This document shows positions 17,110 to 62,420 of a stretch of DNA of 64,000 nt, one piece after another. The DNA is from Pseudomonas muyukensis. GTDB lineage: Bacteria; Pseudomonadota; Gammaproteobacteria; Pseudomonadales; Pseudomonadaceae. Within the stretch, counting starts at the first letter, position 1. Each line of letters begins with the position of its first letter. The DNA lies in the NCBI RefSeq assembly GCF_019139535.1, contig NZ_CP077073.1, positions 5,422,501 through 5,486,500 of the forward strand, read 5' to 3'. Made by a program: the position numbers and the translations under genes. The notes beneath the pieces were generated by a model. That model made no database searches. It had not been told where the DNA came from and saw only the letters and a program-made list of their open reading frames with translations.

Positions 17110-17120
17110 CATGCCTGGCT

Positions 17121-20624: not shown

Positions 20625-20693
20625 AACAATCAGACGAGCAACGCGGATAAAGTCAGTAAGCGAAAACCAAAGTTTTTTTGCCCAGGCGCTTTT

Positions 20694-26817: not shown

Positions 26818-26839
26818 CGCCCAGCTTGCCTGGTCCACC

Positions 26840-36594: not shown

Positions 36595-36604
36595 AATCCT
36601 AAAA

Positions 36605-36632
36605 AGAAGACGCCCTTGGGCGTCTTTTTTTG
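36605..36632 (+). terminator. Terminator of ssrA
   Basis: Hairpin AAGACGCCC/GGGCGTCTT followed by a T-run, 11 bases after the CCA end of tmRNA. Confidence 0.93.
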
Positions 36633-36728
36633 TGCCTGGCATTTAAGGCCGCAGGCTTGCAGGCCGCGCATTTTTGTCTCGCCAATCGTATCGACAAAGG
36701 GCTGTCAACCAGCTCGACAGTGCCGCCT

Positions 36729-45311: not shown

Positions 45312-45544
45312 AGCGCAGCTAAATCGGGATGATCAAATCCGGGCGGAAGCCAGTCTCTTCGCCCGGATACCCCTCGGATTACAAACTACACGGGGTGCCC
45401 GCTACGTCAAAGTTGACGGCGGGGTGCGAATGCCCACGCACCCATAGCGCCATCTCTGTCCGCCCCTATAAGGCTTTCCCAGCGATGGCATATGCGCATC
45501 CATGTGAGGCCGCCATGCAGGCTCGTGGACAATTTCAGCGCGAC

Positions 45545-45826
45545 TTAACCTACGTTAGCCTCGACCAGTCGCAAAGGAGATGACGGTACATCCAGCATGT
45601 ACTGCCTGGTCGCCATCTCTGCCGTAAGCCCGGTAGCTGTCAAAACCCGTTTCCAGGTACCGTAATCCAGGAGATTGATCGCCCTCTGTACCAGCATAGG
45701 CAACGCCATAGGGATCAACTCGTCAAACTCTTCGTGCTTCGTGAGTAAGCGCTCCATGAACCCCACATTCAAAGCGCTTAGCTGATCTCCGATGCTGTGC
45801 TCCCGATTTCTTTCTGGAGCCCGCAC
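45545..45826 (-). other. Chimeric open frame across the IS66 left end
   Basis: The frame starts inside the IS (first 28 codons) and continues outside it for 65 codons (TKHEEFDELIPMALPMLVQR through SSPLRLVEANVG). The outside part has good codon structure and may be the 3' end of a gene cut by the element; reading across the other IS flank (47784 upward) extends the same frame for about 17 codons to a stop. No family recognised. The rest of 45312-45744 shows nothing else I can support. Confidence 0.35.
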
Positions 45827-45829
45827 GCC

Positions 45830-46189
45830 ATGATGCGTCCCGACGCTAAAGTCGAAAAAGTCTATCTCTACCCCAAGCCAGTCGACTTCCGAAAGTCCAT
45901 TGACGGTCTGGCCGCACTGGTTGAACTGGATATCAAAGTGGCGGTGTTCGACCCCGTGCTCTTCGTGTTTCTCAACAAAACGCGAAACCGCGTGAAGATC
46001 CTGTATTGGGAGCGAAACGGCTTCTGCCTCTGGCTCAAGCGTCTCGACTCGGAACGCTTCAAAACATCGCCAGACCCCACCGACGAGGCCATTGTCCTGA
46101 CCGTCCAGGAACTCAATTGGCTACTCGACGGCTTTGACCTCTGGCGTAACCGCCCACATCAAGTTCTGACGCCTCGCTACGTCGCCTGA
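45830..46189 (+). CDS. tnpB: IS66 accessory protein TnpB
   Basis: A 119-residue protein with the family pattern VYLYPKPVDFRKSIDGLAAL, KILYWERNGFCLWLKRL and LLDGFDL. Starts at the first of two adjacent ATGs after a CTGGAG site. Required with TnpC for IS66 transposition; its enzymatic role is unknown. Confidence 0.95.
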   Translation: MMRPDAKVEKVYLYPKPVDFRKSIDGLAALVELDIKVAVFDPVLFVFLNKTRNRVKILYWERNGFCLWLKRLDSERFKTSPDPTDEAIVLTVQELNWLLDGFDLWRNRPHQVLTPRYVA

Positions 46190-46207
46190 TCCAGTATAAT
46201 CCGCGGC

Positions 46208-47740
46208 ATGATTTCCATGCCCGACACCCTCCCTGACGATCCGGTTTTGCTCAAGCAACTGCTTGAGCAGATGATCAATGAGCGCGCGTCTGATAAGGGC
46301 AAGATCGTTCATCTGGAAGAAGAGGTGGCGCTGTTACGCCAGCGGTTGTTTGGCCGCAAGACCGAACAGACCAGCGATTCGGCTACGCCGCAACTCCCTC
46401 TGTTTGACGAAGCAGAAAGCCTGGCAGAACCGGCCGACGAGGCTTCGGAAGAAGAAGTTGTTGCACCAGGCAAACGCCGTGGCAAACGCAAGCCGCTGCC
46501 CAATGATCTGCCGCGTGTCGAGGTCATTCATGAACTGCCTGAGCATGAACTGACGTGTGCATGCGGCTGCCGCAAGCATGCCATTGGCGAAGAAGTCAGC
46601 GAGCAGCTTGAAATCGTCCCGATGCAAATTCGGGTCATCAAGCACATCCGCAAGGTTTATGGTTGCCGCGACTGCGAGTCAGCGCCGGTGACTGCGGATA
46701 AACCCGCTCAGATGATCGAAAAAAGCATGGCCAGCCCCAGCGTGCTGGCGATGTTGCTGACCACCAAATACGTGGACGGCCTGCCACTTCATCGTTTCGA
46801 GAAAGTGCTCGGACGCCACGGCATCGATATCTCGCGTCAAACCCTGGCACGTTGGGTCATCCAATGCGGCGAGCACTTTCAGCCGCTGCTGAACCTGATG
46901 CGCGACAGCCTGTTGAATAGCCGCATCATTCATTGCGATGAAACTCGAGTCCAGGTTCTGAAAGAGCCTGATCGAGAAGCCAGTAGCCAATCCTGGATGT
47001 GGGTACAAACCGGCGGCCCGCCTGACAGGCCGGTGATTCTTTTTGATTACTCCACCAGCCGAGCGCAGGAGGTACCGACTCGCCTGCTGGATGGGTATCG
47101 CGGCTATGTGATGACCGACGATTATGCTGGCTATAACACCCTCGGCGCGCAGGAAGGGGTCGAGCGCCTGGGCTGCTGGGCCCATGCGCGGCGTAAGTTC
47201 GTCGAAGCACAAAAAGTACAACCCAAGGGCAAGACCGGACGCGCTGACATCGCGCTGAACCTGATCAACAAGCTCTATGGTGTCGAGCGCGACTTGAAGG
47301 ACAGCAGTGATGAAGATCGTAAGGCTGCCCGTATGGAGCGCAGCGTGCTATTGCTGAGTCAGCTGAAAAGCTGGGTAGAGAAAACGCAGCCTCAGGTGAC
47401 GACGCAGAATGCGCTGGGCAAGGCCATCGGCTATCTGGCCAGCAACTGGAGCAAGTTGGAGCGCTACGTCGAGCATGGCTACTTGCCGATCGACAACAAC
47501 GCTGCCGAGCGCGCCATTCGCCCGTTTGTCATCGGGAGAAAGAACGGGCTCTTCAGTGACACGCCAAAAGGCGCCACTGCCAGCGCACAGCTTTACAGCC
47601 TGGTCGAAACGGCCAAAGCCAACGGCCAGGAGCCCTATGCGTGGCTGCGCCACGCACTGGAGCGCCTGCCGCAAGCGTCATCAGTTGAAGATTACGAAGC
47701 CCTGCTGCCGTGGAACTGTTCGCCGCGATCACCTAGCTGA
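46208..47740 (+). CDS. tnpC: IS66 transposase TnpC
   Basis: A 510-residue DDE transposase. A leucine-rich coiled-coil N-terminus ([20 protein letters not shown]) is followed by a zinc-binding part ([25 protein letters not shown]) and the catalytic region: [23 protein letters not shown] and [20 protein letters not shown]. Full length and apparently intact. Confidence 0.95.
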
Positions 47741-49096: not shown

Positions 49097-49737
49097 TTTA
49101 TACACTGCCGAGAATTTGAACTGTAGCTTGGAGCAAAATTGAAACTGCGGCGAAAAAGCACCGGCGGCATTCCATTTTAGCTTCCATGGCACCGCACTCC
49201 TAATGAATTGAGCCTAGACACAAAGTCGCAGATAACTCACAGGACGGGCCTGATGTATAACATTCCTTGTTCCTTTAGCTATCCGTGTCTAGGCTGAGGC
49301 TTTCAGCGTGCAGATGAGCGTATAAGGAAGCTATACACCACGCATGAGCAGCCATGCTTGCTCGACCACACGTGGGAGTAAATTCGCCTGCGACATTACT
49401 CGATTCGAACCGAGCGTGTCTATTGCAGGTGGGTTACGTTGCGCGGCAGGAAAAGGTCCGTTTAGGTTGAGGCAGCTCATACGAATTTCGTAGTGTGTGC
49501 CTCCACCTTCACCAGTACTTAGCACCAGGGGTCTTCTGCTTTGATCCTGACCGTCAGCTTCTGGTGGTGCAGTACCTGAGAATTAAAGCCTAAGAGTTAA
49601 CTGTCACCGTCACAGTCTTAGATTAGCCCGCGCATCGTGAAATCGGGCTCTCGGTATTCCATAACAACTTTTTGAACAGCGGCTTTTCAAAAAAAATCGG
49701 GGCTTAGCAAATCAATTCTGATCACCCCGGCCCAATA
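49097..49737. other. No gene recognised; inverted repeat inside
   Basis: About 640 bp without a convincing gene. It contains an 11-bp perfect inverted repeat, AGCCTAGACAC at 49211-49221 and GTGTCTAGGCT at 49285-49295, enclosing 63 bp that include TTATACAT-type A/T-rich sequence. This could be a miniature element or an end of a lost mobile element. A 64-codon minus-strand frame at 49331-49525 lacks supporting signals. Confidence 0.45.
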
Positions 49738-49761
49738 AAAAGACGCCAATTGGCGTCTTCC
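49738..49761 (-). terminator. Terminator of the biosynthetic operon
   Basis: Stem AAGACGCC/GGCGTCTT with loop AATT and an A-run on the left, which is a T-run for minus-strand transcripts. It lies 12 bp after the LysE-family gene. Confidence 0.88.
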
Positions 49762-49772
49762 CAACACCCCCA

Positions 49773-50399
49773 TCAATCCAACGGCTTCCTCAACAAAATA
49801 TCCACCGCAAACACCCCCAACACCGCCCCAGACACCCACCGCTGTGTCCGCATCGCCGCAGGCCGGGCGGTCAGGAAGCGGCTCACCCGCGCCGCCGCCA
49901 ACACAATCAACCCATTAACCGTCACCGCAATGACAATCTGCACCAACCCCAGCTGCATGTACTGCTGCAAGGTCGACCCCACCGTCGGGTCGATGAACTG
50001 CGGAATCAACGCCGAGTACATCAACGCGATCTTCGGGTTCAGCAGGTTGGTCACCAGCCCCATGGTGAACAATTTGCGCGGCGAATGCGGCGGCAGTTCC
50101 CGTGCCTCGAAAGGCGAGGCGCCGCGGACCATGTTCCAGGCCAGGTAACCCAGGTAGAAGGCGCCGGCAATGCGCACCACGTCATACGCCACCGGCACGG
50201 CCTTGAACAGCGCCGACAGGCCAAGCCCGGAGGCCACCAGGTAGCAGATGAACCCCAGCGCCACGCCGGCCAGGGAGATCATCCCGGCCAGGCGGCCCTG
50301 GGAAATCGCCCGGGATGTCAGGTAGACCATGTTCGGGCCGGGGGTCAAGACCATGCCCAGGGCGATGATCGCCACACCTATCAAATTCTCCAACGGCAT
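49773..50399 (-). CDS. LysE/RhtB-family amino-acid exporter
   Basis: A 208-residue inner-membrane protein with about six hydrophobic segments and the family start MPLENLIGVAIIALGMVLTP, followed by GPNMVYLTSRAISQG and NLLNPKIALMYSALIPQF. ATG 50399 has AAGGAG; the 22-codon extension is not used. Last gene of the cluster, 99 bp after the second ATP-grasp gene. Exporters of this family serve amino-acid-like antimetabolite clusters (for example AmbA in P. aeruginosa), so it probably exports the product. Confidence 0.9.
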   Translation of the reverse strand: MPLENLIGVAIIALGMVLTPGPNMVYLTSRAISQGRLAGMISLAGVALGFICYLVASGLGLSALFKAVPVAYDVVRIAGAFYLGYLAWNMVRGASPFEARELPPHSPRKLFTMGLVTNLLNPKIALMYSALIPQFIDPTVGSTLQQYMQLGLVQIVIAVTVNGLIVLAAARVSRFLTARPAAMRTQRWVSGAVLGVFAVDILLRKPLD

Positions 50400-50498
50400 C
50401 TCAACATGCTCCTTCGCATGGCTGGGTGGCCCAACGGCGCTGCAAGGCAGCGCCGCGGCCGGCATCGTTCAATGTAGCCGGGGCGCGCGGCGCGGCCC

Positions 50499-51698
50499 TC
50501 ATGCTTGCAGGCTCCAGGCGTGGGACAACTGCGCGAAGATCGACTCGACATCGCGCTCCAGCGCCTGGCGGTCGAAGCTGCGCAAGCGCAGCCGGGTCTT
50601 CGCCCCTTCATAAACACCGCTGGCACTGCGCTGCAGCTCCTGGGGCTGCGACCAATACAGCGTGCCCAGGCCTGCGTCGGGCGTGCTGGCACGCCGGCCA
50701 ATCACCCAGGCGCCGCGCTCGCCATGCAGCGGGCGGCCGTCGCGGCTGCGGCTGCGCGCCTGCTCGCGGTAGCGGCTGGACGCCTCGGTCTGCAACTCCC
50801 AGGCGATGCCCACCAGGTCGATGTCGCGCACCTCGCGCCAAAGGAAGGGGATTTCCGCGCCGCCGACGCGGGCGCCGATCTCGAGAAAGCGCAAGGTATC
50901 GCCGTCAGCGAACAGCTCCAGGTGAAAGACAATCTCGCGCCCTGGCGCGAACGCCGCCAGCAGCTCGGCAACGCGGCTGGCGATGCGGCGCTCGTCATCG
51001 CCTTCGGCAAGCTCGATGCTGCCCAACGGGCTGTCCGGGCCGAAGTCGGCGCAGCTGTTCACGTAGCGCGATGCGGTCAGCACCACCACCTGCTCGCCAT
51101 CCCACCAGCCATCCACATGCAAAATCGGCGCGGCGCAGAACACTTGGACCATCATCGGCTCTGGCTGCGCGTCCTGCAGCAGCGCCAGGTCCTGCGCCTG
51201 GCGCAGGATCCTGACGCCGCGGCTGGCGGTGCCGAAGCGGGGCTTGAGCACCAGTGGGTAGCCGTGGCGTTGCAGCAGCTGGCGCACCCCCTGCGCGTCG
51301 TCGGCGGCCACCGCCGGCAGCACGGCGATGGCCGTCTGCCGGTTGGCCACCGCGAGCATGCTGAGCTTGTCGCGAAAGCGCTCGACCCAGGCCGGCGCGT
51401 CGCCGTGGATGGCCCAGCGCTCGCGGATCGCGGCGGCATTGAGCAGGTCGCCTTCGTTCAACGCCACCACGCGCTCGGGCACGCCGTACTGGGCGATCAC
51501 TCGCCCAGCCTCGGCCATGACCGCGTCGGCATCGTCCAGCGAGGCCAGCGTCGAGCTCGACGCCAGCCGCGCGGCCGGCAGCGAGCCGAGTGACTCGGGC
51601 GTGCAGATCGCCCGGATCACCCTGCCAGCGGGCAGCTCATACTCGTCGTAGAGTGCCTGGCGCCCTACCCAGCGATGCAGGCAGAGCACGTAGCTCAT
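50499..51698 (-). CDS. ATP-grasp ligase, second
   Basis: A 399-residue carboxylate-amine ligase-like protein. ATP-grasp features: HGYPLVLKPRFGTASRGVRI (lysine and glycine-rich loop of the ATP site, about residue 145-165) and FLEIGARVGGAEIPFLW near 290 with the metal-binding Glu. The C-terminus (about 330-399) is an extra small domain. The ATG overlaps the stop of the first ATP-grasp gene by four bases. Two different ATP-grasps in one operon suggest two successive amide or peptide bonds. Confidence 0.82.
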   Translation of the reverse strand: MSYVLCLHRWVGRQALYDEYELPAGRVIRAICTPESLGSLPAARLASSSTLASLDDADAVMAEAGRVIAQYGVPERVVALNEGDLLNAAAIRERWAIHGDAPAWVERFRDKLSMLAVANRQTAIAVLPAVAADDAQGVRQLLQRHGYPLVLKPRFGTASRGVRILRQAQDLALLQDAQPEPMMVQVFCAAPILHVDGWWDGEQVVVLTASRYVNSCADFGPDSPLGSIELAEGDDERRIASRVAELLAAFAPGREIVFHLELFADGDTLRFLEIGARVGGAEIPFLWREVRDIDLVGIAWELQTEASSRYREQARSRSRDGRPLHGERGAWVIGRRASTPDAGLGTLYWSQPQELQRSASGVYEGAKTRLRLRSFDRQALERDVESIFAQLSHAWSLQA

Positions 51699-52951
51699 GC
51701 CTGGGGCTCCTGGATGAAGTGCACGGCGGCGACCAGTTCATCGCCGATGCGCACCGCGTCCTCGCGCGAGGTGCCGGTGGCCAGCACATAACCGGAAACG
51801 CAGTCGGCCACGGTGTCCAGCGGCGGGATCACATCGCCTTCGTGCTTCTGGATGACCACCGCGCGCTCGGCCTCGCCCAGCTCGAACAGGAACGGCAGGA
51901 ACACCAGCGGCGTCTCGCCTGGGCGGGTGTGGCGCACGTCGACGTCAGGCTTGAGGTCGAGCTCGACCTTGCGCACCTTGCCCGGGGTCGGCACGAAGAA
52001 CTGGATCGCGGCGCCGGCCTTGGGCTCTGGCGACGCCAGCGGCAGTTCGTCGATGCCCAGCGGCACGGTGAGGAACATGCGGTTCAGGTCCAGGCCGAAG
52101 GCGCGGCGCACCAGTTCCGGGGCGCCGGAGCCGGCCAGGCGGGCATGGGACTCGAGCACGCGCGGGCCCTTGGCGGTGAGGACGAACTCGCTGTGCGACG
52201 GGCCCTCTTCCAGCTCCACCGCATCGAGCAGGCGGCAGGTCATGTCCTTGAGCTCGGTGAGCCACTGCTTGGCGTCGGTGCTGGGGGTGCTGACTTCCCA
52301 CTCGACGTACTTGTCGTTCATGCGGTACTGCGAGTAGCCGATCGGCAGGTGGCGGCGCTTGAAGGAGAACGAGTCGACGCTGACCACCGGGCCGTCCAGG
52401 TACTCTTCGATGATGATGTGGCGCACCTCGGCCTCCTTGAGCGCCTGCCAGGCACGGGTGGCGCTGGCGGCATCCTCGCAGGGGTGGATGTGCAGGCTGG
52501 CGACGCCTTCGGCCGGCTTGAGCACCGAGCGGCCATGCTCGGCGACGAACGCGATGGCGTCCTCGGCGCAAGTGACGTGGCGGAAGGCCACCGGGCTCAG
52601 GTCGTGCTTGGCCAGCAGCTCGCGCATGGCCACCTTGTCCTTGAGCAGGTGCGCGGTCTTGTAGGAAACACCGGTCAGCTTGAAGTGGTCGACCACCTTG
52701 CCGGTGGACTCGCCGGCCACCTCGGTGGTGGTGATGATGCGCTCGAACGGGCGCTCGCGGTGCAGCGGCTCGAGCACCTTGATGATTGCCTCGGCATCGT
52801 CGATGCGGGCATGCACCACGCGCTCGCAATGGCTGACGATCTCCTGCTCGTAGTCACCATCCTGGTGCACCAGCACGACATCGATGCCCATTTCCTTGGC
52901 CCCGTGGATAGGCGCCGGACGGCCACCGATAACTGCAATACGCTTGTTCAT
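51695..52951 (-). CDS. ATP-grasp ligase, first
   Basis: A 418-residue ATP-grasp protein of the L-amino-acid-ligase/carnosine-synthase type. N-terminal Rossmann-like domain (RIAVIGGRPAPIHGAKEMGI), DKVAMRELLAKHDLSPV, the ATP loop VLKPAEGVASLHIHP, IIEEYLDGPVVSVDSFSF, and ESHARLAGSGAPELVRRAFG for metal binding. Such enzymes join an amino acid carboxylate to an amine via an acyl phosphate. It follows the oxygenase gene after 43 bp and overlaps the second ATP-grasp gene. Confidence 0.86.
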   Translation of the reverse strand: MNKRIAVIGGRPAPIHGAKEMGIDVVLVHQDGDYEQEIVSHCERVVHARIDDAEAIIKVLEPLHRERPFERIITTTEVAGESTGKVVDHFKLTGVSYKTAHLLKDKVAMRELLAKHDLSPVAFRHVTCAEDAIAFVAEHGRSVLKPAEGVASLHIHPCEDAASATRAWQALKEAEVRHIIIEEYLDGPVVSVDSFSFKRRHLPIGYSQYRMNDKYVEWEVSTPSTDAKQWLTELKDMTCRLLDAVELEEGPSHSEFVLTAKGPRVLESHARLAGSGAPELVRRAFGLDLNRMFLTVPLGIDELPLASPEPKAGAAIQFFVPTPGKVRKVELDLKPDVDVRHTRPGETPLVFLPFLFELGEAERAVVIQKHEGDVIPPLDTVADCVSGYVLATGTSREDAVRIGDELVAAVHFIQEPQA

Positions 52952-52990
52952 GCAAACTCCTTGTTCGTCGTGAGATTTGTCAGCAAAGCA

Positions 52991-53947
52991 TCAGCTGCCG
53001 TAGACCCGGCGCAACCAGCGCGCCTGGCCATCGGGCAGGGGTTTGAACGCCTTGCGCCGATGCAGCACGCGGGCGTTCTTGAAAATGAAGAAGTCACCGG
53101 GCTGCAGCACCAGCTCTATGCCCTGGATATCCTTGAGCACCTGGCGCAGCAGGCTGAGCGCGGCCTGGGCGGGCGCGGCGCTGGCGCTGACGATGCCGTC
53201 GTCGAAGCGCAGCCGATAGCCGTTGGCGCCACGTTCGAGAATCGGCATCACCCGTTGCTCGCCGTCATAGCCTTCGTTGGAGGCCGGCGCGCCGAAAGCG
53301 AAGGCCGACTGGCTGAGTTCCTCGATGGCCCAGGCCGGCAGGCATGACAGCACATGGTCGACACAGACGATGTCGGTGGAAGCCTGCTCGTGGTTACGCA
53401 CGGCGATGAACGCCAGGTAGTTGGGCACGCTGCGGGCGACATCGCTGGCCTGGTCGTCGAATGGCCAGTTGGGGTTGTCGGTATGCCACGAGAAATCCAC
53501 ATCCGCGCCCCAGGAACTGGTGGTGCCTGCCGCTTGCGCCACCGGCACCACATTGCGCACCAGCTTGCCGTGGTTCTCGTACTCCACGGCGTGGGAGCGC
53601 ACCCCCAGCAGGTTGAGCATGCCGAAATGCAGCAGGTCGAAATCCAGCACGCACTGGGCATCGGGCAAAAACCCGTTGCTCGGCGACGGCACCGCGGTGG
53701 ACAGCCCAATGCCGCGCAACAGCAGGGCCTTGTGGCTGCACCCGGCAAACCCGCGGATGCTCTCGACCAGGGTCGGGCCAAGCAGCGAGCGCAGCCAGTC
53801 GGCACCCACCGCGCCGACGTTGTCGGCGCGGTGCGGCATGCTGGCCAGGCGTTCGCGGCAGGCGGCCAGCCCGGACAGGTCGGCATCGCTCACGGTCAGC
53901 ACCTGGACCACCGAGGCCTGGTGCACATCCAGCGCCATGAGGCTCAT
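52991..53947 (-). CDS. Clavaminate-synthase-like Fe(II)/2-oxoglutarate oxygenase
   Basis: A 318-residue member of the TauD/clavaminate-synthase superfamily. The iron-binding HxD is in DFSWHTDNPNWPF (near residue 152), and the distal His with the 2-oxoglutarate-binding Arg in ARVLHRRKAFKP (near 295). Relatives hydroxylate or desaturate free or carrier-bound amino acids (for example AmbC/AmbD, arginine hydroxylases). ATG 53947 overlaps the stop codon of a 38-codon gene; the longer frame from 54067 runs through that gene in another frame and is rejected. Confidence 0.88.
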   Translation of the reverse strand: MSLMALDVHQASVVQVLTVSDADLSGLAACRERLASMPHRADNVGAVGADWLRSLLGPTLVESIRGFAGCSHKALLLRGIGLSTAVPSPSNGFLPDAQCVLDFDLLHFGMLNLLGVRSHAVEYENHGKLVRNVVPVAQAAGTTSSWGADVDFSWHTDNPNWPFDDQASDVARSVPNYLAFIAVRNHEQASTDIVCVDHVLSCLPAWAIEELSQSAFAFGAPASNEGYDGEQRVMPILERGANGYRLRFDDGIVSASAAPAQAALSLLRQVLKDIQGIELVLQPGDFFIFKNARVLHRRKAFKPLPDGQARWLRRVYGS

Positions 53948-54060
53948 GATTGGCGCTTCAGGTAGGACGTGACCTTGGGATCCGGACGATGGGCAAACCG
54001 CGCGCTGCGCCGGAACAACACACCGAGAGGCAAGATCAGGTAGAGCAGAACGTATTCCAT
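53944..54060 (-). CDS. 38-residue membrane peptide
   Basis: A short gene: MEYVLLYLILPLGVLFRR, then a polar tail rich in Arg and Lys, ending SYLKRQS. One hydrophobic helix at the N-terminus, positive-inside tail. GGGAAGG lies eight bases before ATG 54060. Its TGA overlaps the oxygenase ATG (ATGA), which strongly suggests it is translated. It may anchor cluster enzymes to the membrane; no homologue is known to me. Confidence 0.7.
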   Translation of the reverse strand: MEYVLLYLILPLGVLFRRSARFAHRPDPKVTSYLKRQS

Positions 54061-54088
54061 GTTGCACCTTCCCTAGTAGATGAAATGT

Positions 54089-55927
54089 TCAGTCCAGCGG
54101 CACGGTCTCGCGCCAGTCGACCGCTTCCTCGAACCGTGGCTGCTGGGCTTTCTCGAGGTAGAAATCGCCGATGGCCAATACGTCCATGTTGGTGCGCATG
54201 AAGCAGCGGTAGGCCTCGAACGGTGTGTTGACGATGGGCTCGCCACGCACGTTGAACGAGGTGTTGACCAGCGCCGGGCACCCGGTGCGCTGGTGGAAGC
54301 GTTCGAGCAAGGCGCGAAAACGCGGGTTGCGCTCGCTGTCGACGGTTTGCACCCGCGCCGAGAAGTCGACATGGGTGATCGCCGGCAGGTCGCTGCGCAC
54401 CACCTTGAGCAGGTCGATGCCGGTCAACTGCGCCTGGTGCCCGGGCACGCTCTTGCGAATCGCCTGGGCCACCGGCGACACCACCAGCATGTAGGGGCTC
54501 TCCTCGACGATGTCGAAGCAGTCGGCCGCGCGCTCGGCCAGCACCACCGGGGCGAACGGGCGGAACGACTCGCGGAACTTGATGCGCAGGTTCATCGTCG
54601 ACTGGGTGTCGGAGCGCCGTGGGTCACCGAGGATCGAGCGGTTGCCCAGCGAGCGCGGACCAAACTCCATGCGCCCCTGGAACCAGCCCACCACGCCGCC
54701 TTCCTCCATGCTCAGGATCACCCGGTGGTCGAATTCCTCCTGGCTCAGCTGCTGGTACACGGCGCCGCATTCATCCAGTTCGGCGCGGATCTGCTCGGCG
54801 CTGTACTGTGGCCCGAGCAGCGAGCCGCTCATGCCATCGACCGCTTCGGGCAGTTCGCGCTGGCTGACCTGGCGCTGCCGGCGATCGGTGAGCAACGCCG
54901 CCCCCAGCGAACCACCGGCATCACCGGCAGCCGGTTGAATCCACAGGCGCTCGAAGGTCCGCTCGCGAGACACCACGCCGTTGGCCACGCAGTTCAGGGC
55001 CACGCCACCGGCCATGCACAGGTTGCGCTCGCCGGTAAGCTCGCGGGCGGTCTTGGCCAGGCGCGAAACGATCAGCTCGGTGACTTTCTGCACCGAGGCC
55101 GCGAGGTCGAACTCACGCTCGGTCAGCGGCGCCTCGGGCAGACGCCGCGGGCCGCCGAACAAGCGCACGAAGGCTTCGCCGGTCATCACTTCACCGCGGA
55201 TAAACTCGAACTTGGTCCAGTCCAGGCGGAAGCTGCCGTCGGGCTTCACATCGATCAGCTCGGCGAGGATGCGCTCGGCGTACACCGGCTTGCCATAGGG
55301 CGCCAGGCCCATGAGCTTGTACTCGCCGGAGTCGACCTTGAAGCCGCAGAAGTAGGTGAACGCCGAATAGAGCAGGCCAAGCGAATGCGGGAACGAAAGC
55401 TCCGCGACTTTCTCCAGGCCCTCGGGCTTGCCGTGCCAGAGCGTGGTGGTGGCCCATTCGCCGACGCTGTCGATGCACAGGATCGCCGCCCGTTCGAAGG
55501 GGCTGGGGAAAAAGGCCGAGGCGGCATGGGAGGCATGGTGGCCATGCACCTCGATGCGTCGGTCGGCGCGGTCGCCCATCTCCTTGAGGTGGCGCAGCAC
55601 TTCTCGGTCCATGCGCCGCTTGGTGGTGAGCCAGTCGGCCAGTACCGGGGCGTAGGTGCGCACCGCCGACAGGCCAGCGACCGCCGCGGTGGACAGCACC
55701 CGGCGAAATTTCAGGGCCGGGTCCTCGTAGTAGGCCACGTGGTCGACCTGGTCCAGGCGCAAGCCGGCCTCGGCCAGCACGAAGGCAATGGCCTGGCGCG
55801 GGAACCCTGGGTCGTGGCGGATGCGGCTGAAGCGTTCTTCCTGGGCCGCGGCGACGATGCGGCCATCGATCACCAGCGTGGCCGCGCTGTCGTGGTAGAA
55901 GGCGGAGATGCCGAGTGTGCAGGTCAT
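54089..55927 (-). CDS. NodU/CmcH-family O-carbamoyltransferase
   Basis: A 612-residue protein. The N-terminal Kae1-like domain shows LGISAFYHDSAATLV and EERFSRIRHDPGFP, and HHASHAASAFFPSPF with the metal-binding histidines. The C-terminal YrdC-like domain shows FGPRSLGNRSILGDPR and INLRIKFRESFRPFAP-like NLRIKFRESFRPF. Family members transfer a carbamoyl group from carbamoyl phosphate via carbamoyl-AMP to a hydroxyl. ATG 55927 overlaps the previous stop (ATGA); the 843-codon frame extending upstream is out of register with the preceding gene and rejected. Confidence 0.93.
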   Translation of the reverse strand: MTCTLGISAFYHDSAATLVIDGRIVAAAQEERFSRIRHDPGFPRQAIAFVLAEAGLRLDQVDHVAYYEDPALKFRRVLSTAAVAGLSAVRTYAPVLADWLTTKRRMDREVLRHLKEMGDRADRRIEVHGHHASHAASAFFPSPFERAAILCIDSVGEWATTTLWHGKPEGLEKVAELSFPHSLGLLYSAFTYFCGFKVDSGEYKLMGLAPYGKPVYAERILAELIDVKPDGSFRLDWTKFEFIRGEVMTGEAFVRLFGGPRRLPEAPLTEREFDLAASVQKVTELIVSRLAKTARELTGERNLCMAGGVALNCVANGVVSRERTFERLWIQPAAGDAGGSLGAALLTDRRQRQVSQRELPEAVDGMSGSLLGPQYSAEQIRAELDECGAVYQQLSQEEFDHRVILSMEEGGVVGWFQGRMEFGPRSLGNRSILGDPRRSDTQSTMNLRIKFRESFRPFAPVVLAERAADCFDIVEESPYMLVVSPVAQAIRKSVPGHQAQLTGIDLLKVVRSDLPAITHVDFSARVQTVDSERNPRFRALLERFHQRTGCPALVNTSFNVRGEPIVNTPFEAYRCFMRTNMDVLAIGDFYLEKAQQPRFEEAVDWRETVPLD

Positions 55928-58029
55928 AGCAGCGACCTCATGGTTTCCTTGAACTTGTCCAGCATGGTGTCCTCCCTGGGTGGATTGAGCGCGACGTATC
56001 CGGTACGGATACGCGCCCATAGTTCGTCGCGGTCGCGTGTAGAAAATGCGCTGAGGTAAGCGTCCAGGCTGGCGGCAGCCCAGGCGCTGTGGCCGGTGGA
56101 AATGTTGTCGATGGCGTTGTGCAGGTCGACGAACAGGGTCGGGTAGCCATAGGCGACCAACGCCTTGTGGGTGCGCCGGTAGCCACCGCCCACGCCGGAC
56201 AACTCCATCGCCAGGTTGAGCCCGAGGATTTCCGGGCAGTAGCTCTGGGGATAGCGGCCGATGGCCAACCAGAACACCGGCAGCTCGAAGTCCTCGTCGG
56301 CGAAACACTCGGCAGCGGCGTAGCCTGGCGCGGCGGTGGCCGGTAGTTCGCCATGCACCGCCCGCAGCAACTGGCGGTAGATCACGGGGTGGTTCTGTGC
56401 CTCGAGGCCGTTGCCCAGCTCGTCGTACAGGGTCTCGAACAGGCGGCTGCCAAAGGCCGAGGCCGCCAAAGACGGATGGGCGAAACCGGCCAGCCAGGCG
56501 CCGTCGATCATGGTCAGCGGCGCCAGGGCGACGATGTCGGCAATCACCTCTTCGCGGCTGGGCAAGTCCTGGGGCTGCTCCAGCGCCTGGTTGGACAACG
56601 CATGCTGCTGTTGCAGCCACTCGCGCAGCACGCCCGGGGCCCAGTGTTCGGGTAGCGGGCAGCGGCCCTTGGCCACTCCGCGGGCGGCCTTGACCAGCCA
56701 GCGGTTGACGTAGTGCCGGGCATGGTTCTGCTCGGCCGGGGTCAGCTCGACGTGCAGCAAGCGCGGGTAGGCTTGGCGCGGTGCCAGGCGAGTCGCCAGG
56801 ATCGGCGCCTCGACCTCCTCGCCCAGCAGCCCGGCCAGCAGGCCGTCATCCTTCCACAGCGCGCGTGCCGGCTGTGGCTGAGGTTGTTCGGCGTAGGGCA
56901 GCCCGGCAATCCAGCGCTCGAGGATGGCCAGGTCGTCGCGGCTGAAGATGCGGAACATCTTGCCTCGCGGCGATACCAGCGTGGTCAGCAACGGGCTGCC
57001 TTGCGGGTTGCCGGCGCGGACATAGGCGCTGGCGGCCAGATGCTCGAGAAACCGCAGCGAGTCATCCTCCTCCAGCAGCGAACGCATCGGCACTTTGTTC
57101 AAGCGGGTTTTTTCGTGGTACTGGCAGGCATCCGGGCGTCGCCGGCTGATCAGGTCACGGGCGGCCTCGCGGGGGTCGAGCCAGCGCTCCAGCACGGCGA
57201 GCAGCGCGCTGTTCGCCGACTCGACCTGCCAGCGCGCCCAGCAATACCCCTGGCGCATGCCTTGCTGGGCCGCGGGCCCGGCCTGGGCGAGGTACTCGCG
57301 TACCGCGGCCTCGGCCAGCGCCGCCAGGTCTTGCGCCGAACCGGACGGGTCGCGGCGCAGGTCGAGCAGGCGCTCGCGCTCAGGCTGCCCATCGGCGATG
57401 AAGGCGAACATCGGCAACACGCCACAGTGGCGCAGGTAGAGGTTGGCCCCGAGGATCTGCGGCAACAGCGACTCGGGAAAATGCCCGAGCAGCACCAGCA
57501 TCGCCGCCAGGTTGAACGCGCCGTCGCAGACGCCGGAATCGTCACCGATGGCCTGGGGATCCTCGCCGGCATCCGACGGCGCCAGCTCACGCATCAGCTC
57601 GCGATAACGCTGGATACGACTGGCGCCGGGCCGGCCACCGCCAACATCCAGCGCATGGACCTGCAACATGGCCATGGCATAGCGCGCTTCGTTGTTCCAG
57701 CTGGCGCAGACGGCGTGGATCAGGTGCTGGCTGCCAAGCAACAGCGGCGCAGCCTCACGCACGGCCTTGGCGCGCAGCAGCTGGCCCTCGTGCTCGCCAA
57801 GACGCTGCTGCAGCCGCTGCCAGCCCTGGCCGATGGCCTGCAGGCGCTGGGCGGCGTCCGTGGCCAGGCCGGCCAGCTGCTGCGGGCAGGCGAAGTCGGT
57901 CTCGACCTGCGCGGCGCCGGGCGCGGCGGCGAGGCAGGCGCGCAGGCTGGCGGCTGAACACATCCGCCGGGCCTGGTCACCCGACTCGGCGCCGAGCAGG
58001 CTGGAAAATAACTGCCGATGGCTGTTCAT
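55924..58029 (-). CDS. Duplicated haem-oxygenase-like diiron oxidase (iron-containing redox enzyme family)
   Basis: A 701-residue protein, about twice the size of single-domain members. The two halves each contain a related motif: FPESLLPQILGANLYLRHCG near residue 185 and YPQSYCPEILGLNLAMELSG near 590. The second half also has DLHNAIDNISTGHS near 640, typical metal-ligand spacing of haem-oxygenase-like oxidases. Known relatives perform N-oxygenation, desaturation or C-C cleavage on amino-acid-derived substrates. ATG 58029 overlaps the stop codon of the 31-codon peptide gene (TGATG) and the end overlaps the carbamoyltransferase start. Confidence 0.82.
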   Translation of the reverse strand: MNSHRQLFSSLLGAESGDQARRMCSAASLRACLAAAPGAAQVETDFACPQQLAGLATDAAQRLQAIGQGWQRLQQRLGEHEGQLLRAKAVREAAPLLLGSQHLIHAVCASWNNEARYAMAMLQVHALDVGGGRPGASRIQRYRELMRELAPSDAGEDPQAIGDDSGVCDGAFNLAAMLVLLGHFPESLLPQILGANLYLRHCGVLPMFAFIADGQPERERLLDLRRDPSGSAQDLAALAEAAVREYLAQAGPAAQQGMRQGYCWARWQVESANSALLAVLERWLDPREAARDLISRRRPDACQYHEKTRLNKVPMRSLLEEDDSLRFLEHLAASAYVRAGNPQGSPLLTTLVSPRGKMFRIFSRDDLAILERWIAGLPYAEQPQPQPARALWKDDGLLAGLLGEEVEAPILATRLAPRQAYPRLLHVELTPAEQNHARHYVNRWLVKAARGVAKGRCPLPEHWAPGVLREWLQQQHALSNQALEQPQDLPSREEVIADIVALAPLTMIDGAWLAGFAHPSLAASAFGSRLFETLYDELGNGLEAQNHPVIYRQLLRAVHGELPATAAPGYAAAECFADEDFELPVFWLAIGRYPQSYCPEILGLNLAMELSGVGGGYRRTHKALVAYGYPTLFVDLHNAIDNISTGHSAWAAASLDAYLSAFSTRDRDELWARIRTGYVALNPPREDTMLDKFKETMRSLL

Positions 58030-58124
58030 CAGTGCATTGGATAAATAGAGGAATTGTTCTTTTTCTTGGACTTCTTCTTGCGTTTGAAGAGCGATCCGAG
58101 GGCCTGGCGAATACGTTTGAACAT
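58029..58124 (-). CDS. 31-residue Lys-rich peptide gene
   Basis: Starts MFKRIRQALGSLFKRKK, continues with a run rich in Lys and ends NNSSIYPMH. GAGGAAAA lies before ATG 58124. It begins 17 bp after the SGNH-like gene and its stop overlaps the start of the diiron oxidase gene by one base (TGATG), so it is almost certainly translated and coupled. The basic amphipathic N-terminus and distinct C-terminus suit a precursor or carrier peptide modified by the cluster enzymes, for instance by ATP-grasp addition. That role is a hypothesis; a coupling leader peptide is the alternative. Confidence 0.75.
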   Translation of the reverse strand: MFKRIRQALGSLFKRKKKSKKKNNSSIYPMH

Positions 58125-58141
58125 GGTCTTTTCCTCACATG

Positions 58142-59191
58142 TCATTGCAGATGGTGATGAATGGCCTGCGCCACTACATCGTTTCCAAGGTCGGTAAAGT
58201 GCGCGCGGTCGACAAAGAACCATTCATCCGCCGGGCGCGCTTGCAACGCATCGACCAAGTTGCTGAACGGGATGCCCAGGGCATGGCAGCCGCTGGCGAG
58301 TTTGTCCGCATACTGGGCAGCCACCGCCGGGTCGGAAATATCACCGTACAAGTGTTGCCACGTCCCCAGCCGAGAAATACGGTCCAGTTCGTCAAACAAC
58401 TTCTGTTCTTCGGCGCAGGGCGAACGCACCCAGGTGGCCAAGGGTTGCATGACGAAGGAAAGTTCCGCACCCAGCGACTGCGCCAGGCACTTCCAGGTTT
58501 TCAGGCAGTTCAGCGTATCGGCCGTGGCCCGCGCCAGGGTCTGCGCCACAGGCGGCACCGCGGTGGTTTCATTGGGCCACTTGGGAAGTTTTGCCGGTGG
58601 CAGTTTCGCCCCATGCTCCTCGGCGATCTCGTCGAACTTCTCGTAATAGTCGCCGCAGAAATAAAACGCTGGCAGTTCACCGCGGACGAACTCTGGCAGG
58701 CGCGCCATCACCAGGGTGTTGAAGCCCCCCATGACCACGATCCGGTGGATTTTCGGCAGCCGGTGCATATGCAGCATGAACAGCGTCAGCTCTTGGGTGG
58801 CGTTGAAGCAGTGGCCGGCAAAATTCAGCCAGGGGGTGCCTTGCGGGTCATGCGCCGCCAGCCGGCTCACCACCGAGGTGGCATCGCTGGAAGCCCCGTA
58901 CCCCAAGGCCGGCGACGCGCCGACAAGAATGTTTACCGGGCCATCGGCACAGGCTTGGAGCTGGCCGGCACTGATCGCCCGGCCTTGCTTGTCGTGGGCG
59001 AAACGAAAGCCCAGGCGGTCGGTGTTGATCGACGCCGATTGATAGCCCGCGGCATTGAAGCTCATGACATAGGGCAGGTATTGCGAACGGCCGCGATTGG
59101 CGAAACGGTCGTAATCGAGCATTTGCGGCGTAAGTTTTACGCGCTCGAGCGAAGGATCATCAAGCGCAACGGGTTTGCGACTCTTGAACAT
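58142..59191 (-). CDS. SGNH/GDSL-hydrolase-like protein
   Basis: A 349-residue protein. Block I is degenerate but keeps the serine context: NILVGASPALGYGASSD (near residue 90; GAS instead of GDS). A later GGFNTL may serve as the Asn/Gly block, and the C-terminal DRAHFTDLGNDVVAQAI matches the Asp-x-x-His block V. No signal peptide, so cytosolic. ATG 59191 (MFKSRKPVALDD) is preferred to TTG 59197. First gene of the operon; it may act as an acyl transferase or release hydrolase. Confidence 0.72.
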   Translation of the reverse strand: MFKSRKPVALDDPSLERVKLTPQMLDYDRFANRGRSQYLPYVMSFNAAGYQSASINTDRLGFRFAHDKQGRAISAGQLQACADGPVNILVGASPALGYGASSDATSVVSRLAAHDPQGTPWLNFAGHCFNATQELTLFMLHMHRLPKIHRIVVMGGFNTLVMARLPEFVRGELPAFYFCGDYYEKFDEIAEEHGAKLPPAKLPKWPNETTAVPPVAQTLARATADTLNCLKTWKCLAQSLGAELSFVMQPLATWVRSPCAEEQKLFDELDRISRLGTWQHLYGDISDPAVAAQYADKLASGCHALGIPFSNLVDALQARPADEWFFVDRAHFTDLGNDVVAQAIHHHLQ

Positions 59192-59848
59192 GGTCAAGCC
59201 ACTCCATTGGATTACAATTTATTCCATTAACGGCGCTGCCTTTATTACGAGCAAACAATAGCCGTCAAAGTATCGATCTACTTTTTTCGAGCACCCAGTA
59301 CTTGCCAACCCTGCCCCAGCGGGCACGGCAGACTAAGTTTCAGGCACGAGGCGGCCCCACGTCTTTTTGTGAAAAGTCAGTGGTCGCGCGATAAATGGGC
59401 AGGATTAACTAAAAGGCAGGGTGTGGCGAAAAGGAGGCGTGGTGAGCGGCTATCCGTGCAAGGAAATCCATACTGGAAGCAGTTGTTTTTATTTTCAGGT
59501 GCTGCCAAAGACATCCAAGCATTATCATTATCCCTTGTTATATTTTCTTCGGTTCCAACCGAAGCGACGCTCAGGCCACCGATTTTTGAGGAGCCTGCGG
59601 CAGCTGTCAATACGTGCAAAGTCGCATTTCATCGATTAAATAAAAAGTTCACGTTCAGTGCACAGGCGTAACCACTCAAATGAATAACATTGCGCTTGCG
59701 AAACACACCATTGATTAGCTAAAGCGCTCATGTAACATTCAGATGACATCACGCCTGCGGCAAAAGCATCAGTTCGCCACTATTGAATACGCCTGGCCTC
59801 GATGCTTGGCCACCGCCGTGACCCGCCCTTGCGAAGGAGCCCACCAGG
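59192..59848. other. A/T-rich intergenic region with divergent promoters
   Basis: About 650 bp separating the biosynthetic operon from the alpha/beta hydrolase gene. It is clearly more A/T-rich than the surroundings, mainly 59470-59720. A 100-codon plus-strand frame (59369-59671) has no ribosome site or family features and is not accepted. It must hold the operon promoter and may hold a small RNA, but I cannot point to one. Confidence 0.5.
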
Positions 59849-61034: not shown

Positions 61035-62420
61035 TCATGCTTGGGCGGCCACGCTACGGCCGTGGCCGCGGCTGGTGACGATGCCGAGGAACGAAATCAC
61101 GATCGCCAGGCTCAGGGTGGCGGTCACCTCGGCGCGGTGCTCCTCGGTGAACATCATCACCGCCAAGGCGCCGCTGATGAACAGGATCACCGCCCAGGTC
61201 AGGTAGGGGAACAGCCACATGCGAAACTTCAGGTTGGCGTTCTCGCGCTCCAGGCGCCCACGCATGCGCAGCTGCGAAATGGCGATCACCAGGTACACCA
61301 GCAAGGCGATGGCGCCGGAACTGGCCAGCAGGAACTCGAACACGCCCTTGGGCGCGAAGTAGTTGAGGATGGCGATGGCCGCGCCGATCAGCGTGCTGCC
61401 GAACACCGCCGCGCGCGGTACGCCAACCTTGGAGGTGTGCTTGAGCATGGCCGGGGCGTCACCACGCTTGGCCAGCGAATACATCATCCGCGAGGCGATG
61501 TAGATCGATGAGTTCATGCAGCTGGTCACCGCGATCAGCACCACGAAGTCGACCATCAACGCGGCGTTGGGGATGTTCATGATTTCCAGCGCCCGCTGGT
61601 ACGAACCCACCACGGCCAGCTGCGGATCGTTCCACGGCACCACCGAAATGATCACGAAGATCGACAGGATGTAGAAGGTGCTGATGCGCCAGATCACCGA
61701 GCGGGTGGCCTTGGCGATGTTGCGCGCCGGGTCGCTGGACTCGGACGCCGCGATGGTCACCGCCTCGGTGCCGATGAAGCTGAACATCACGGTGATGAAC
61801 GCCCCCACCACCGCCGACCAACCCTTGGGCGCGAAGCCGCCGTGCTCATCCATCAAGCTGCTCAGGCCGCTGACCTCGCGCGCGGGCAGCCAGCCCATCA
61901 GCGCGGCGAAGCCCAGCCCGATGAAGCCGAGGATCGCGGTGACCTTGAGGATGGCGAACCAGAACTCGAACTCGCCGTACTTGGCCACGCTGAACAAGTT
62001 GGTGCAGGCCAGCAGCAGCACCGAGCCCAAGGCGAAGATCCAGCTGTCCACCTGGGGGAACCAGGCATTGAGCACATGCCCGGCGGCCAGCGCCTCGATG
62101 GGGATCACCAGCACCCAGAACCACCAGTACAACCAGCCGATGGTGTAGCCGGCCCAGCGGCCGATGGCCTGGTCGGCATAGGTGGAAAACGAACCGGTAT
62201 CGGGGTGGGCCACGGCCATTTCGCCGAGCATGCGCATCACCAGCACCACCAGGGTGCCGGCCACGAAATAGGAAAGAATGGTGGCGGGCCCGGCGGCCGC
62301 GATAGCGTGGCCGGAGCCTACGAAAAGTCCGGCACCGATGATGCCGGCGATCGACAGCATCGTTACATGACGTGGCTTGAAACCTTGTGCAAGGTTGCCA
62401 TCAGTTCCCACGGTGTTCAT
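61035..62420 (-). CDS. gabP: Amino-acid permease, GABA-permease-like
   Basis: A 461-residue APC-superfamily transporter with 12 membrane segments. Seen: FKPRHVTMLSIAGIIGAGLF at the N-terminus, RMLGEMAVAHPDTGSFSTYA, and FSFIGTEAVTIAASESSDPA. These are characteristic of the GabP/AnsP/ProY group, and the start is closest to GabP. Substrate assignment (4-aminobutyrate) is by resemblance only; no gab catabolic genes are adjacent. Confidence 0.82.
   Translation of the reverse strand: MNTVGTDGNLAQGFKPRHVTMLSIAGIIGAGLFVGSGHAIAAAGPATILSYFVAGTLVVLVMRMLGEMAVAHPDTGSFSTYADQAIGRWAGYTIGWLYWWFWVLVIPIEALAAGHVLNAWFPQVDSWIFALGSVLLLACTNLFSVAKYGEFEFWFAILKVTAILGFIGLGFAALMGWLPAREVSGLSSLMDEHGGFAPKGWSAVVGAFITVMFSFIGTEAVTIAASESSDPARNIAKATRSVIWRISTFYILSIFVIISVVPWNDPQLAVVGSYQRALEIMNIPNAALMVDFVVLIAVTSCMNSSIYIASRMMYSLAKRGDAPAMLKHTSKVGVPRAAVFGSTLIGAAIAILNYFAPKGVFEFLLASSGAIALLVYLVIAISQLRMRGRLERENANLKFRMWLFPYLTWAVILFISGALAVMMFTEEHRAEVTATLSLAIVISFLGIVTSRGHGRSVAAQA

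What the first reader, a model, noticed from the sequence alone, without database searches (positions are those of the whole stretch)
49738..59191. Nine-gene operon without NRPS/PKS that looks like an undescribed metabolite pathway
Seen: nine minus-strand genes, most joined by 1-4 bp overlaps, ending in a terminator: SGNH-like protein, 31-residue peptide, 701-residue diiron oxidase, carbamoyltransferase, 38-residue membrane peptide, clavaminate-type oxygenase, two ATP-grasps, LysE exporter. Known: these families together make modified amino acids or dipeptides and LysE exporters release them; vinylglycine-type clusters of Pseudomonas (amb, and from memory the gvg cluster of P. fluorescens WH6, which also has a carbamoyltransferase, a small ORF and LysE genes) share parts. 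Inference: a carbamoylated, oxidised amino-acid or peptide antimetabolite built without an NRPS.
Basis: partly seen in the sequence, partly recalled or inferred. Interest (0 to 1): 0.9.

Follow-up and report, generated by a model that had tools for sequence, protein, structure and literature searches.

The report
gvg-like operon for oxidised amino acids
A nine-gene Pseudomonas operon, also found in distant bacteria, probably adds a carbamoyl group to an amino acid, oxidises it and links it to other amino acids; two of its genes make tiny peptides with strikingly constant sequences that look like helpers of the carbamoyl-adding enzyme.

Summary
The nine genes are real and form one conserved unit: 6 of 298 sampled genomes of the genus have a close diiron-oxidase copy, and all 6 carry the same nine genes in the same order. 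Five of the nine (SGNH, 31-aa peptide, oxidase, carbamoyltransferase, 38-aa peptide) match the core of the FVG (gvg) cluster, so this is a "gvg-like" cluster, a kind already in print (PMC8064604). It is not an FVG cluster: no gvgH or gvgI orthologue was found in the genome. New here: (1) the 31-aa peptide's extreme C-terminus (SIYPMF type) is near-invariant in 78 of 80 loci with a GvgC relative; (2) the two peptides resemble DUF5989 and SxtJ, small proteins beside related carbamoyltransferases (the DUF5989 match is not significant as a profile); (3) the oxidase is a tandem haem-oxygenase fold whose active half resembles N-oxygenases RohS, SznF and HrmI; (4) oxygenase plus two amino-acid ligases accompany the core in 25 of 80 loci, in two phyla. 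Best reading: carbamate N-oxidation making an N-O bond, then peptide coupling and export. The chemistry is inferred.

The parts
58142..59191 (-). gvgA-like SGNH/GDSL hydrolase, 349 aa
   Evidence: PF13472 weak (E 0.015, below cut-off); S93, N158, D328, H331 invariant in 21 of 21 aligned; 36-91% identity to the 20 others
58029..58124 (-). gvgB-like 31-aa peptide: basic, probably amphipathic N-terminal helix plus C-terminal SSIYPMH
   Evidence: stop codon overlaps the start of the next gene, which has no obvious ribosome-binding site of its own
58032..58049 (-). C-terminal hexapeptide SIYPMH of the 31-aa peptide
   Evidence: SIYPMF/H/Y, TIYPMF/N or EIYPLF at the extreme C-terminus in 78 of 80 loci; one other match among 31,207 open segments
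55924..58029 (-). gvgC-like tandem haem-oxygenase-fold (HDO) diiron oxidase, 701 aa
   Evidence: PF14518 E 1.6e-14; AlphaFold2 model pLDDT 90.7
57160..57903 (-). N-terminal HDO-fold domain (residues 43-290), probably non-catalytic
55975..56823 (-). C-terminal catalytic HDO domain (residues 403-685); candidate ligands D509, E537, H547, E600 or E609, H637, D641, H647
54089..55927 (-). gvgF-like NodU-family O-carbamoyltransferase, 612 aa
   Evidence: PF02543 E 1.3e-82, PF16861 E 9.2e-70; PDB relatives NovN, GdmN, TobZ
53944..54060 (-). gvgG-like 38-aa peptide, one hydrophobic segment, probably a short form of the SxtJ C-terminal half
   Evidence: P-type, mostly actinobacterial, GvgG versus SxtJ: HHalign probability 98.6%; the window's own form aligns to that set at 63%
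52991..53947 (-). Fe(II)/2-oxoglutarate oxygenase of the VioC / clavaminate synthase group, 318 aa
   Evidence: PF02668 E 4.2e-10; H155-x-D157...H296 and R310 invariant in 19 of 19; PDB
51695..52951 (-). ATP-grasp L-amino-acid ligase (LAL), 418 aa
   Evidence: PF18603 LAL_C2 E 4.4e-7, over cut-off; BL00235 E 4.6e-14
50499..51698 (-). second, divergent ATP-grasp ligase, 399 aa
49773..50399 (-). LysE-family exporter, 208 aa
   Evidence: PF01810 E 1.4e-30; 87-100% identity in Pseudomonas relatives
49736..49763 (-). intrinsic terminator hairpin
   Evidence: -20.3 kcal/mol for the 48-nt stretch, z -3.97, 0 of 200 shuffles as good; not listed by the consensus scan
59582..59610 (-). sigma-70-like promoter match upstream of gvgA (weak evidence)
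   Evidence: 10 of 12 consensus; 2 matches in the region against 1.2 expected by chance

Best explanation
This is a gvg-like biosynthetic operon. A reduced O-carbamoylation module (carbamoyltransferase F, SGNH hydrolase A, and two small membrane-associated helper peptides B and G) carbamoylates a hydroxyl of an amino acid. The tandem HDO protein C, whose second half is an N-oxygenase-like diiron domain, then oxidises nitrogen, most likely the carbamate nitrogen, creating an N-O bond; in the FVG pathway this would be the source of the aminooxy group. In this variant an Fe/2OG oxygenase hydroxylates or desaturates the amino acid, two L-amino-acid ligases couple it to one or two further amino acids, and LysE exports the product. 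Shown by sequence or predicted structure: gene set, order, family assignments, intact catalytic motifs, constant B tail, similarity of related G peptides to SxtJ. Inferred: substrate, order of steps, N-oxidation of the carbamate, the docking role of the B tail, the di- or tripeptide nature of the product.
For: Conserved nine-gene order in 6 of 6 genomes. Core shared with P. fluorescens FW300-N2E3, which PMC8064604 names as a gvg carrier (L091: A 41%, C 37%, F 57%, and a B with SSIYPMF). In WH6, loss of gvgA, B, C, F or G abolishes activity (table in PMC8067088). FVG carries an N-O bond and no carbamate (its name and text, PMC8064604). The catalytic half of C ranks RohS, SznF and HrmI first, about 4 Z units above 3bjd and FlcD, with three His and enough acidic residues invariant in 49 of 49. 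HrmI shows the same 'WDE[LM]GNG...H' motif (E 0.57, weak alone). Carbamoyltransferases 50-57% identical to F sit beside DUF5989 in 29 of 30 loci, with SxtJ-like proteins in 16 of 20 larger loci. A GDSL protein was proposed as a decarbamoylase beside such a transferase (PMC2679770 passages). Ligases match LAL structures.
Against: No enzyme was assayed. HDOs also do C-C cleavage and C-H chemistry, and fold rank does not prove reaction. HrmI is 3H/3C and SznF 3H/4C (PMC13108848), so the ligand count does not decide. Conversion of an N-hydroxycarbamate to an alkoxyamine has no enzymatic precedent that I know of. The window peptide B is not significantly similar to DUF5989 by profile (probability 24%); its G matches the P-type GvgG set only at 63%, and S-type GvgG matches SxtJ directly only at 53%. 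No control was run with carbamoyltransferases that lack DUF5989, so the 50-57% identity is not shown to be special to that subfamily. SGNH neighbours in the DUF5989 loci were hand-picked and only 2 of 6 pass the Pfam cut-off; tblastn with the window's A found none in those 20 loci. gvgA and gvgC have been suggested in print to be regulators (PMC8067088).
Confidence: 0.45

Rival explanations
1. The carbamate stays in the product and the HDO acts on carbon (desaturation, cleavage or hydroxylation), giving a carbamoylated, oxidised amino acid or peptide.
For: HDOs such as BesC and UndA act on carbon (PMC13108848 passages); NodU-type transferases normally leave a final carbamate (family knowledge; PDB relatives NovN, GdmN, TobZ).
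Against: FVG, made with the same core, has no carbamate; the catalytic half is closest in fold to N-oxygenases.
Confidence: 0.25
2. Reverse order: C N-hydroxylates an amine of the amino acid first, and F carbamoylates the N-OH, making a good leaving group for N-O, N-N or rearrangement chemistry.
For: HrmI and SznF N-oxygenate free amines or guanidines; the transferase needs only a nucleophilic oxygen (inference).
Against: Known relatives of F carbamoylate carbon-bound hydroxyls (family knowledge); FVG's alpha-amine is not oxidised.
Confidence: 0.12
3. Peptide B is a ribosomal carrier or precursor: its constant C-terminus is itself carbamoylated or extended and the product is released by the SGNH hydrolase.
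For: A short ORF with a near-invariant extreme C-terminus beside tailoring enzymes in 78 of 80 loci; an esterase-type hydrolase in the operon; required for FVG production (PMC8067088).
Against: The tail is the same where the neighbouring genes, and presumably the products, differ; no peptide-aminoacyl-tRNA ligase or protease was recognised among the nine genes; DUF5989 has a similar tail without an HDO being known beside it (HDO hits were not tallied in those loci).
Confidence: 0.08
4. A and C are mainly regulatory, with F, O and the ligases making the product.
For: gvgA and gvgC knockouts lower gvg transcription, and a regulatory role was suggested in print (PMC8067088 passages).
Against: Intact SGNH and diiron motifs invariant in 21 and 49 sequences; that paper itself suggests that a by-product of the pathway induces the cluster.
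Confidence: 0.05

Closest known systems
gvg cluster for 4-formylaminooxyvinylglycine (P. fluorescens WH6 and relatives)
   Same: gvgA, B, C, F and G counterparts and LysE export; same A-B-C...F-G order
   Different: no orthologue of gvgH (class III aminotransferase) or gvgI (formyltransferase) found in this genome and no gvgR-like gene recognised beside the operon; adds Fe/2OG oxygenase and two amino-acid ligases; carbamoyltransferase is in a separate, well-supported clade (quick tree)
gvg-like clusters of Davis et al. 2021, PMC8064604 (core gvgA, B, C, F; at least eight variants; includes alm genes of the aldgamycin cluster)
   Same: this operon meets their core definition
   Different: whether the oxygenase plus two ATP-grasp set is one of their variants could not be read (figure key and tables not held); the main text has no 'ATP-grasp', 'dioxygenase' or 'clavaminate'
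SxtJ / DUF5989 / GDSL / NodU carbamoyltransferase module (Pfam PF19588, PF19451; SxtJ named after the saxitoxin operon)
   Same: carbamoyltransferase 50-57% identical; small membrane proteins, one with a matching SxtJ half and one with an IY..F-type C-terminus; an SGNH/GDSL protein in some loci
   Different: DUF5989 and SxtJ are longer and more hydrophobic; the tblastn of all nine window proteins on the 30 smaller loci hit only the carbamoyltransferase, so no HDO within 1.5 kb
HDO N-oxygenases RohS, SznF, HrmI
   Same: fold of the catalytic half, conserved 3-His plus carboxylate pattern
   Different: GvgC has a second, degenerate HDO domain at its N-terminus; sequence identity 11-17% over the aligned part
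Bacterial L-amino-acid ligases RizA, BL00235, BacD
   Same: fold (ATPg) and sequence (LAL) of the two ATP-grasp proteins
   Different: low identity; substrates unknown

Membership tests
gvg cluster (FVG) | gvgA, B, C, F, G counterparts together | tested here: met
   window against L091 (P. fluorescens FW300-N2E3); the G link is the weakest (63%)
gvg cluster (FVG) | gvgI formyltransferase, the marker gene used in print | tested here: not met
   query from L104; own genome best 28% over about 68 residues, E 2.6e-4
gvg cluster (FVG) | gvgH class III aminotransferase | tested here: not met
   query from L104; own genome best 30% (E 3.4e-55), at the level of general class III aminotransferases, none in the operon
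gvg-like cluster (PMC8064604) | core gvgA, gvgB, gvgC, gvgF | tested here: met
SxtJ/DUF5989-type carbamoylation module | NodU-family carbamoyltransferase of the DUF5989-linked kind | tested here: inconclusive
   50-57% identity to 29 of 30, but no control with unlinked transferases; the DUF5989-linked set is one side of one branch in the quick tree, support 85, apart from the gvg ones
SxtJ/DUF5989-type carbamoylation module | SxtJ homologue | tested here: inconclusive
   P-type GvgG 98.6% to the SxtJ half; S-type 53%; window GvgG 63% to the P-type set; no Pfam SxtJ hit
SxtJ/DUF5989-type carbamoylation module | DUF5989 homologue | tested here: inconclusive
   same kind of C-terminus and place, but profile comparison not significant (24%); no Pfam DUF5989 hit
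HDO diiron oxidase/oxygenase | haem-oxygenase fold with 3 His and at least 3 carboxylate ligands | tested here: met
   ligands assigned from invariance and spacing, not from coordinates
HDO diiron N-oxygenase | extra carboxylate on auxiliary helix 2 (3H/4C, SznF and RohS) | tested here: inconclusive
   D509 invariant, 28 residues before E537; no coordinates at hand
HDO diiron N-oxygenase | N-oxygenation activity | not testable with these tools
   needs enzyme assay
VioC/clavaminate-synthase-type Fe/2OG oxygenase | H-x-D/E...H triad and 2OG-binding Arg | tested here: met
   H155, D157, H296, R310 invariant in 19 of 19; roles by family knowledge and alignment
L-amino-acid ligase | ATP-grasp protein nearest to RizA/BL00235/BacD | tested here: met
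   LAL by sequence, ATPg by predicted fold

The most novel reading that the evidence does not exclude
The gvg core is a peptide-scaffolded, membrane-associated enzyme assembly that builds N-O bonds from carbamates: F makes a carbamate, C N-hydroxylates it, and A turns the N-hydroxycarbamate into an alkoxyamine (or, with a neighbouring hydroxyl, a cyclic carbonate as in aldgamycin). The constant SIYPMF tail of B and the SxtJ-like tail of G dock into the carbamoyltransferase, and the same tail logic (DUF5989, SxtJ) serves a much wider set of carbamoyltransferases. This would be a new route to N-O bonds and would explain both orphan peptides of FVG biosynthesis.
Probability: 0.28. Interest if true: 0.85.

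Novelty: new variant of a known kind. Interest (0 to 1): 0.6.

Why it matters
The FVG pathway, and what its two required small peptides do, are stated as unknown in print (PMC8067088 passages). The pattern found here gives each a specific, cheap test: an N-oxygenase assay on carbamates, and a six-residue tail deletion. It also links two families without known function (DUF5989, SxtJ) to one enzyme family, and points to a set of clusters in two phyla (25 of 80 loci) that may make the same kind of small peptide.

Tried and rejected
Paper searches for the core chemistry or for a characterised ligase-carbamoyltransferase cluster listed nothing that fits (judged by titles and abstract starts). The careful maximum-likelihood tree did not finish; only the quick tree is used (50 gvg-type transferases, the window's included, out of the 75 found in the 80 loci, and 19 of the 20 DUF5989-linked ones). 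Considered and rejected: FVG cluster proper (no gvgH or gvgI orthologue); the small ORFs being spurious; a general HDO-fold coincidence for the catalytic half (the three N-oxygenases stand about 4 Z units above the next family). Searching 'IYPMF' and 'YPMF' in papers gave 16, of which the 15 listed are unrelated by title and hold no 'IYPMF'; 'DUF5989' gave none; 'gvg-like' with carbamoyltransferase gave only PMC8064604. One bug: the script emptied its own query file, so its tblastn part is void; one search replaced it. One search lists no ferritin-type fold, which is not evidence against one.

Papers: PMC8064604 parts 1-4 of 7 read plus passages; PMC8067088, PMC13108848, PMC13185094, PMC11611611 and PMC2679770 passages only. 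Others were seen only as search listings. The aldgarose cyclic carbonate and the SznF ligands other than E189 are recalled, not from a call (SznF E189 and RohS E93 are).

Full report
Observation. Start codons and junctions were read from the sequence: A (SGNH) 59191-58142; B (31 aa) 58124-58029; C (701 aa) 58029-55924; F (carbamoyltransferase) 55927-54089; G (38 aa) 54060-53944; O (oxygenase) 53947-52991; LAL 52951-51695; ATPg 51698-50499; LysE 50399-49773. Four of eight junctions overlap. C has no obvious ribosome-binding site and starts on the stop codon of B (TGATG), so it is probably translated by coupling to B. The terminator hairpin is supported by folding, though the consensus scan did not list it. 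The promoter-like match upstream is not above chance.

Distribution. Of 298 sampled genomes of the genus (Pseudomonas, by named contigs of the same lengths), 6 (own included) hold a GvgC of 67-100% identity and 8 more one of 34-38%. In all 6 the nine genes are present in the same order; three of the other five (L035, L037, L038) have about 780 bp of extra room between ATPg and LysE, which in L035 holds a short-chain dehydrogenase. The ligase LAL at E <= 1e-30 is found in exactly the same 6 of 298 genomes. None of the other 18 sampled relatives carries GvgC at E <= 1e-80, so the cluster is patchy. A scan of one genome per species with the GvgC alignment A1 confirmed 117 loci; the best 80 were kept and are the set counted below.

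Link to gvg. PMC8064604 and PMC8067088 describe the gvg cluster of P. fluorescens WH6: gvgR, A (lipase/esterase), B (Lys-rich), C (haem-oxygenase 2), D, E, F (NodU carbamoyltransferase), G (small), H (aminotransferase), I (formyltransferase), J and K (LysE); and gvg-like clusters with core A, B, C, F in at least eight variants. P. fluorescens FW300-N2E3, named there as a gvg carrier, is L091 here: against the window A 41%, C 37%, F 57%, and its B ends SSIYPMF. The window therefore has the gvg core. gvgH and gvgI counterparts taken from L104 (P. paralactis) have no orthologue that I could find in the window's genome, so it should not make FVG.

The 31-aa peptide. In print GvgB is described as about 30% lysine. 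The alignment shows more: a short basic helix, a Lys/Arg linker and a near-invariant extreme C-terminus. In 78 of the 80 loci one ORF, 22-34 codons from its nearest start in 77 (no start found in L124), ends in SIYPMF (65), SIYPMH (5), TIYPMF (3), SIYPMY (2), EIYPLF (2) or TIYPMN (1). It lies 5' of gvgC in 75 of these 78 (72 within 678 bp; L067, L088 and L112 at 1.9-5.7 kb) and 3' of it in three (L107, L117, L127). The two misses (L097, L101) also lack F and A. F was found in 75 and A in 74 of 80; three loci with the tail lack both in the DNA held (L089, and L117 and L127, which are cut by contig ends). Among all 31,207 stop-ended open segments of 20 residues or more in these loci only one other ends in a wider form of the motif. 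Between Pseudomonas species the ORF is under purifying selection (pN/pS 0.135). Papers searched for IYPMF and YPMF gave nothing relevant.

Counterparts elsewhere. DUF5989 (PF19451) proteins end in APFIYTLF or close forms: 27 of 30 loci displayed the tail (the other three were not shown by that script's filter). Of 150 sampled genomes of the phylum 40 match (38 over the cut-off), none of 14 control genomes. 29 of 30 DUF5989 loci have a carbamoyltransferase 50-57% identical to F beside it; the miss, L146, is a 1,865-base locus. Among 20 larger loci, 20 have the transferase and 16 an SxtJ-like protein; 9 of the 10 SxtJ-like queries came from these same loci, so only 7 of the 16 are independent finds. 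Two such proteins were checked and match the SxtJ family (PF19588, E 4e-12 and 5e-9). Six neighbouring proteins from five loci, picked by eye, matched the GDSL family, two of six over the cut-off; tblastn with the window's A found none in the 20 loci, and not every locus shows a GDSL-like neighbour. P-type GvgG peptides (mostly actinobacterial) align with the C-terminal half of SxtJ at 98.6% probability; the S-type (mostly proteobacterial) aligns with the P-type at 98% but with SxtJ directly at only 53%; the window's G aligns with the P-type at 63%. B and DUF5989 are not significantly similar as profiles (24%); they share place, helix, basic patch and tail. So the gvg core looks like a slimmed carbamoylation module plus the HDO; for G this rests on a chain of profile matches, for B on the motif and the neighbourhood. 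No control with transferases that lack these neighbours was run. That SxtI works with SxtJ and SxtK, and that the GDSL protein SxtL removes carbamoyl groups, has been proposed (passages of PMC2679770).

Variant genes. The oxygenase has its triad and 2OG arginine intact and is closest to arginine, lysine and asparagine hydroxylases and clavaminate synthase. Both ATP-grasp proteins are nearest to L-amino-acid ligases, LAL by sequence and ATPg by predicted fold. Oxygenase plus LAL lie within the held locus beside the core in 27 of 80 loci, with ATPg in 25, in Pseudomonas, Reinekea, a Mariprofundaceae genome and actinobacteria. L058 (Nocardiopsis) keeps the order A-B-C-F-G-O-LAL-ATPg; other loci, such as L107, L086 and L066, are arranged differently. 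In the quick carbamoyltransferase tree the Pseudomonas-Reinekea clade (100) is apart from the FVG clade and from the actinobacterial clade; the label 'oxygenase plus LAL' needs 8 changes, at least 4 forced by well-supported branches. The second half of the pathway and the core have thus probably been recombined.

Mechanism. I commit to: O-carbamoylation of a hydroxy amino acid, N-oxidation of that carbamate by C, resolution with the help of A into an N-O product, coupling by two ligases, and export by LysE. The carbamate nitrogen is chosen because FVG retains an N-O unit but no carbamate, because C's fold is N-oxygenase-like, and because the same core sits in the aldgamycin cluster (text of PMC8064604), whose aldgarose carries a cyclic carbonate (recalled). 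N-hydroxycarbamate could lead to both. This is inference; rivals and tests are listed.

Verdict. Real, conserved and coherent. It is a new variant of gvg-like clusters rather than a new kind. The fresh points are the near-invariant peptide tail, the likeness of the two orphan peptides to SxtJ and DUF5989, the tandem HDO with an N-oxygenase-like half, and the oxygenase-ligase set shared by two phyla.

Noticed in passing
window 36203-47740: tmRNA followed by a lower-GC stretch with a type IIG MmeI-like restriction-modification gene (38149-40947), YhcG nuclease (41076-42017), a DEAD/ResIII-type helicase (42014-44128), a T5orf172 protein (44085-45311) and an IS66 transposase (46208-47740): a defence/mobile island beside the operon. 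In relative G003 the distance from tmRNA to the permease gene of 61035-62420 is about 85 kb against about 24 kb here.
   Followed up: partly
window 26804-27956: Five copies of a repeat unit spaced about 190-235 bp apart, between an SmpB-like reading frame and a GntR-like one at 27894-28664 (both named by sequence look only).
   Followed up: no
window 12518-21773: HasA-type haem acquisition locus: HasA (17121-17759), TonB receptor (17821-20574), FecR (20694-21773) and ABC, HlyD and outer-membrane export genes (12518-17048).
   Followed up: no
window 4169-6573: Class I/II aminotransferase with an overlapping MFS gene, right after a serine hydroxymethyltransferase-like frame (named by sequence look).
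   Followed up: no
L048:6364-6623: Two GvgB-like tails (ending GGSIYPLR) in tandem behind one gvgA-like gene.
   Followed up: no
L046:6095-10397: A different gvg-like variant with a second, divergent carbamoyltransferase, an ATP-grasp and an MFS exporter.
   Followed up: no
L058:18138-19544, L079:4471-5856: MocR-type (GntR plus aminotransferase) regulators beside actinobacterial clusters, like gvgR; none recognised beside the window operon.
   Followed up: no
L079:16471-16833, L074:16565-16855, L058:16384-16785: ORFs of 96-133 aa between LAL and ATPg in actinobacteria, no Pfam match.
   Followed up: no
L094:7321-8079, L079:7520-8266, L035:2392-3189: Short-chain dehydrogenase genes inside or beside some oxygenase-ligase variants (Pfam for L094 and L035; L079 by sequence look); none seen in the window operon, and its genome has at best a 39% relative of the L035 one.
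   Followed up: partly
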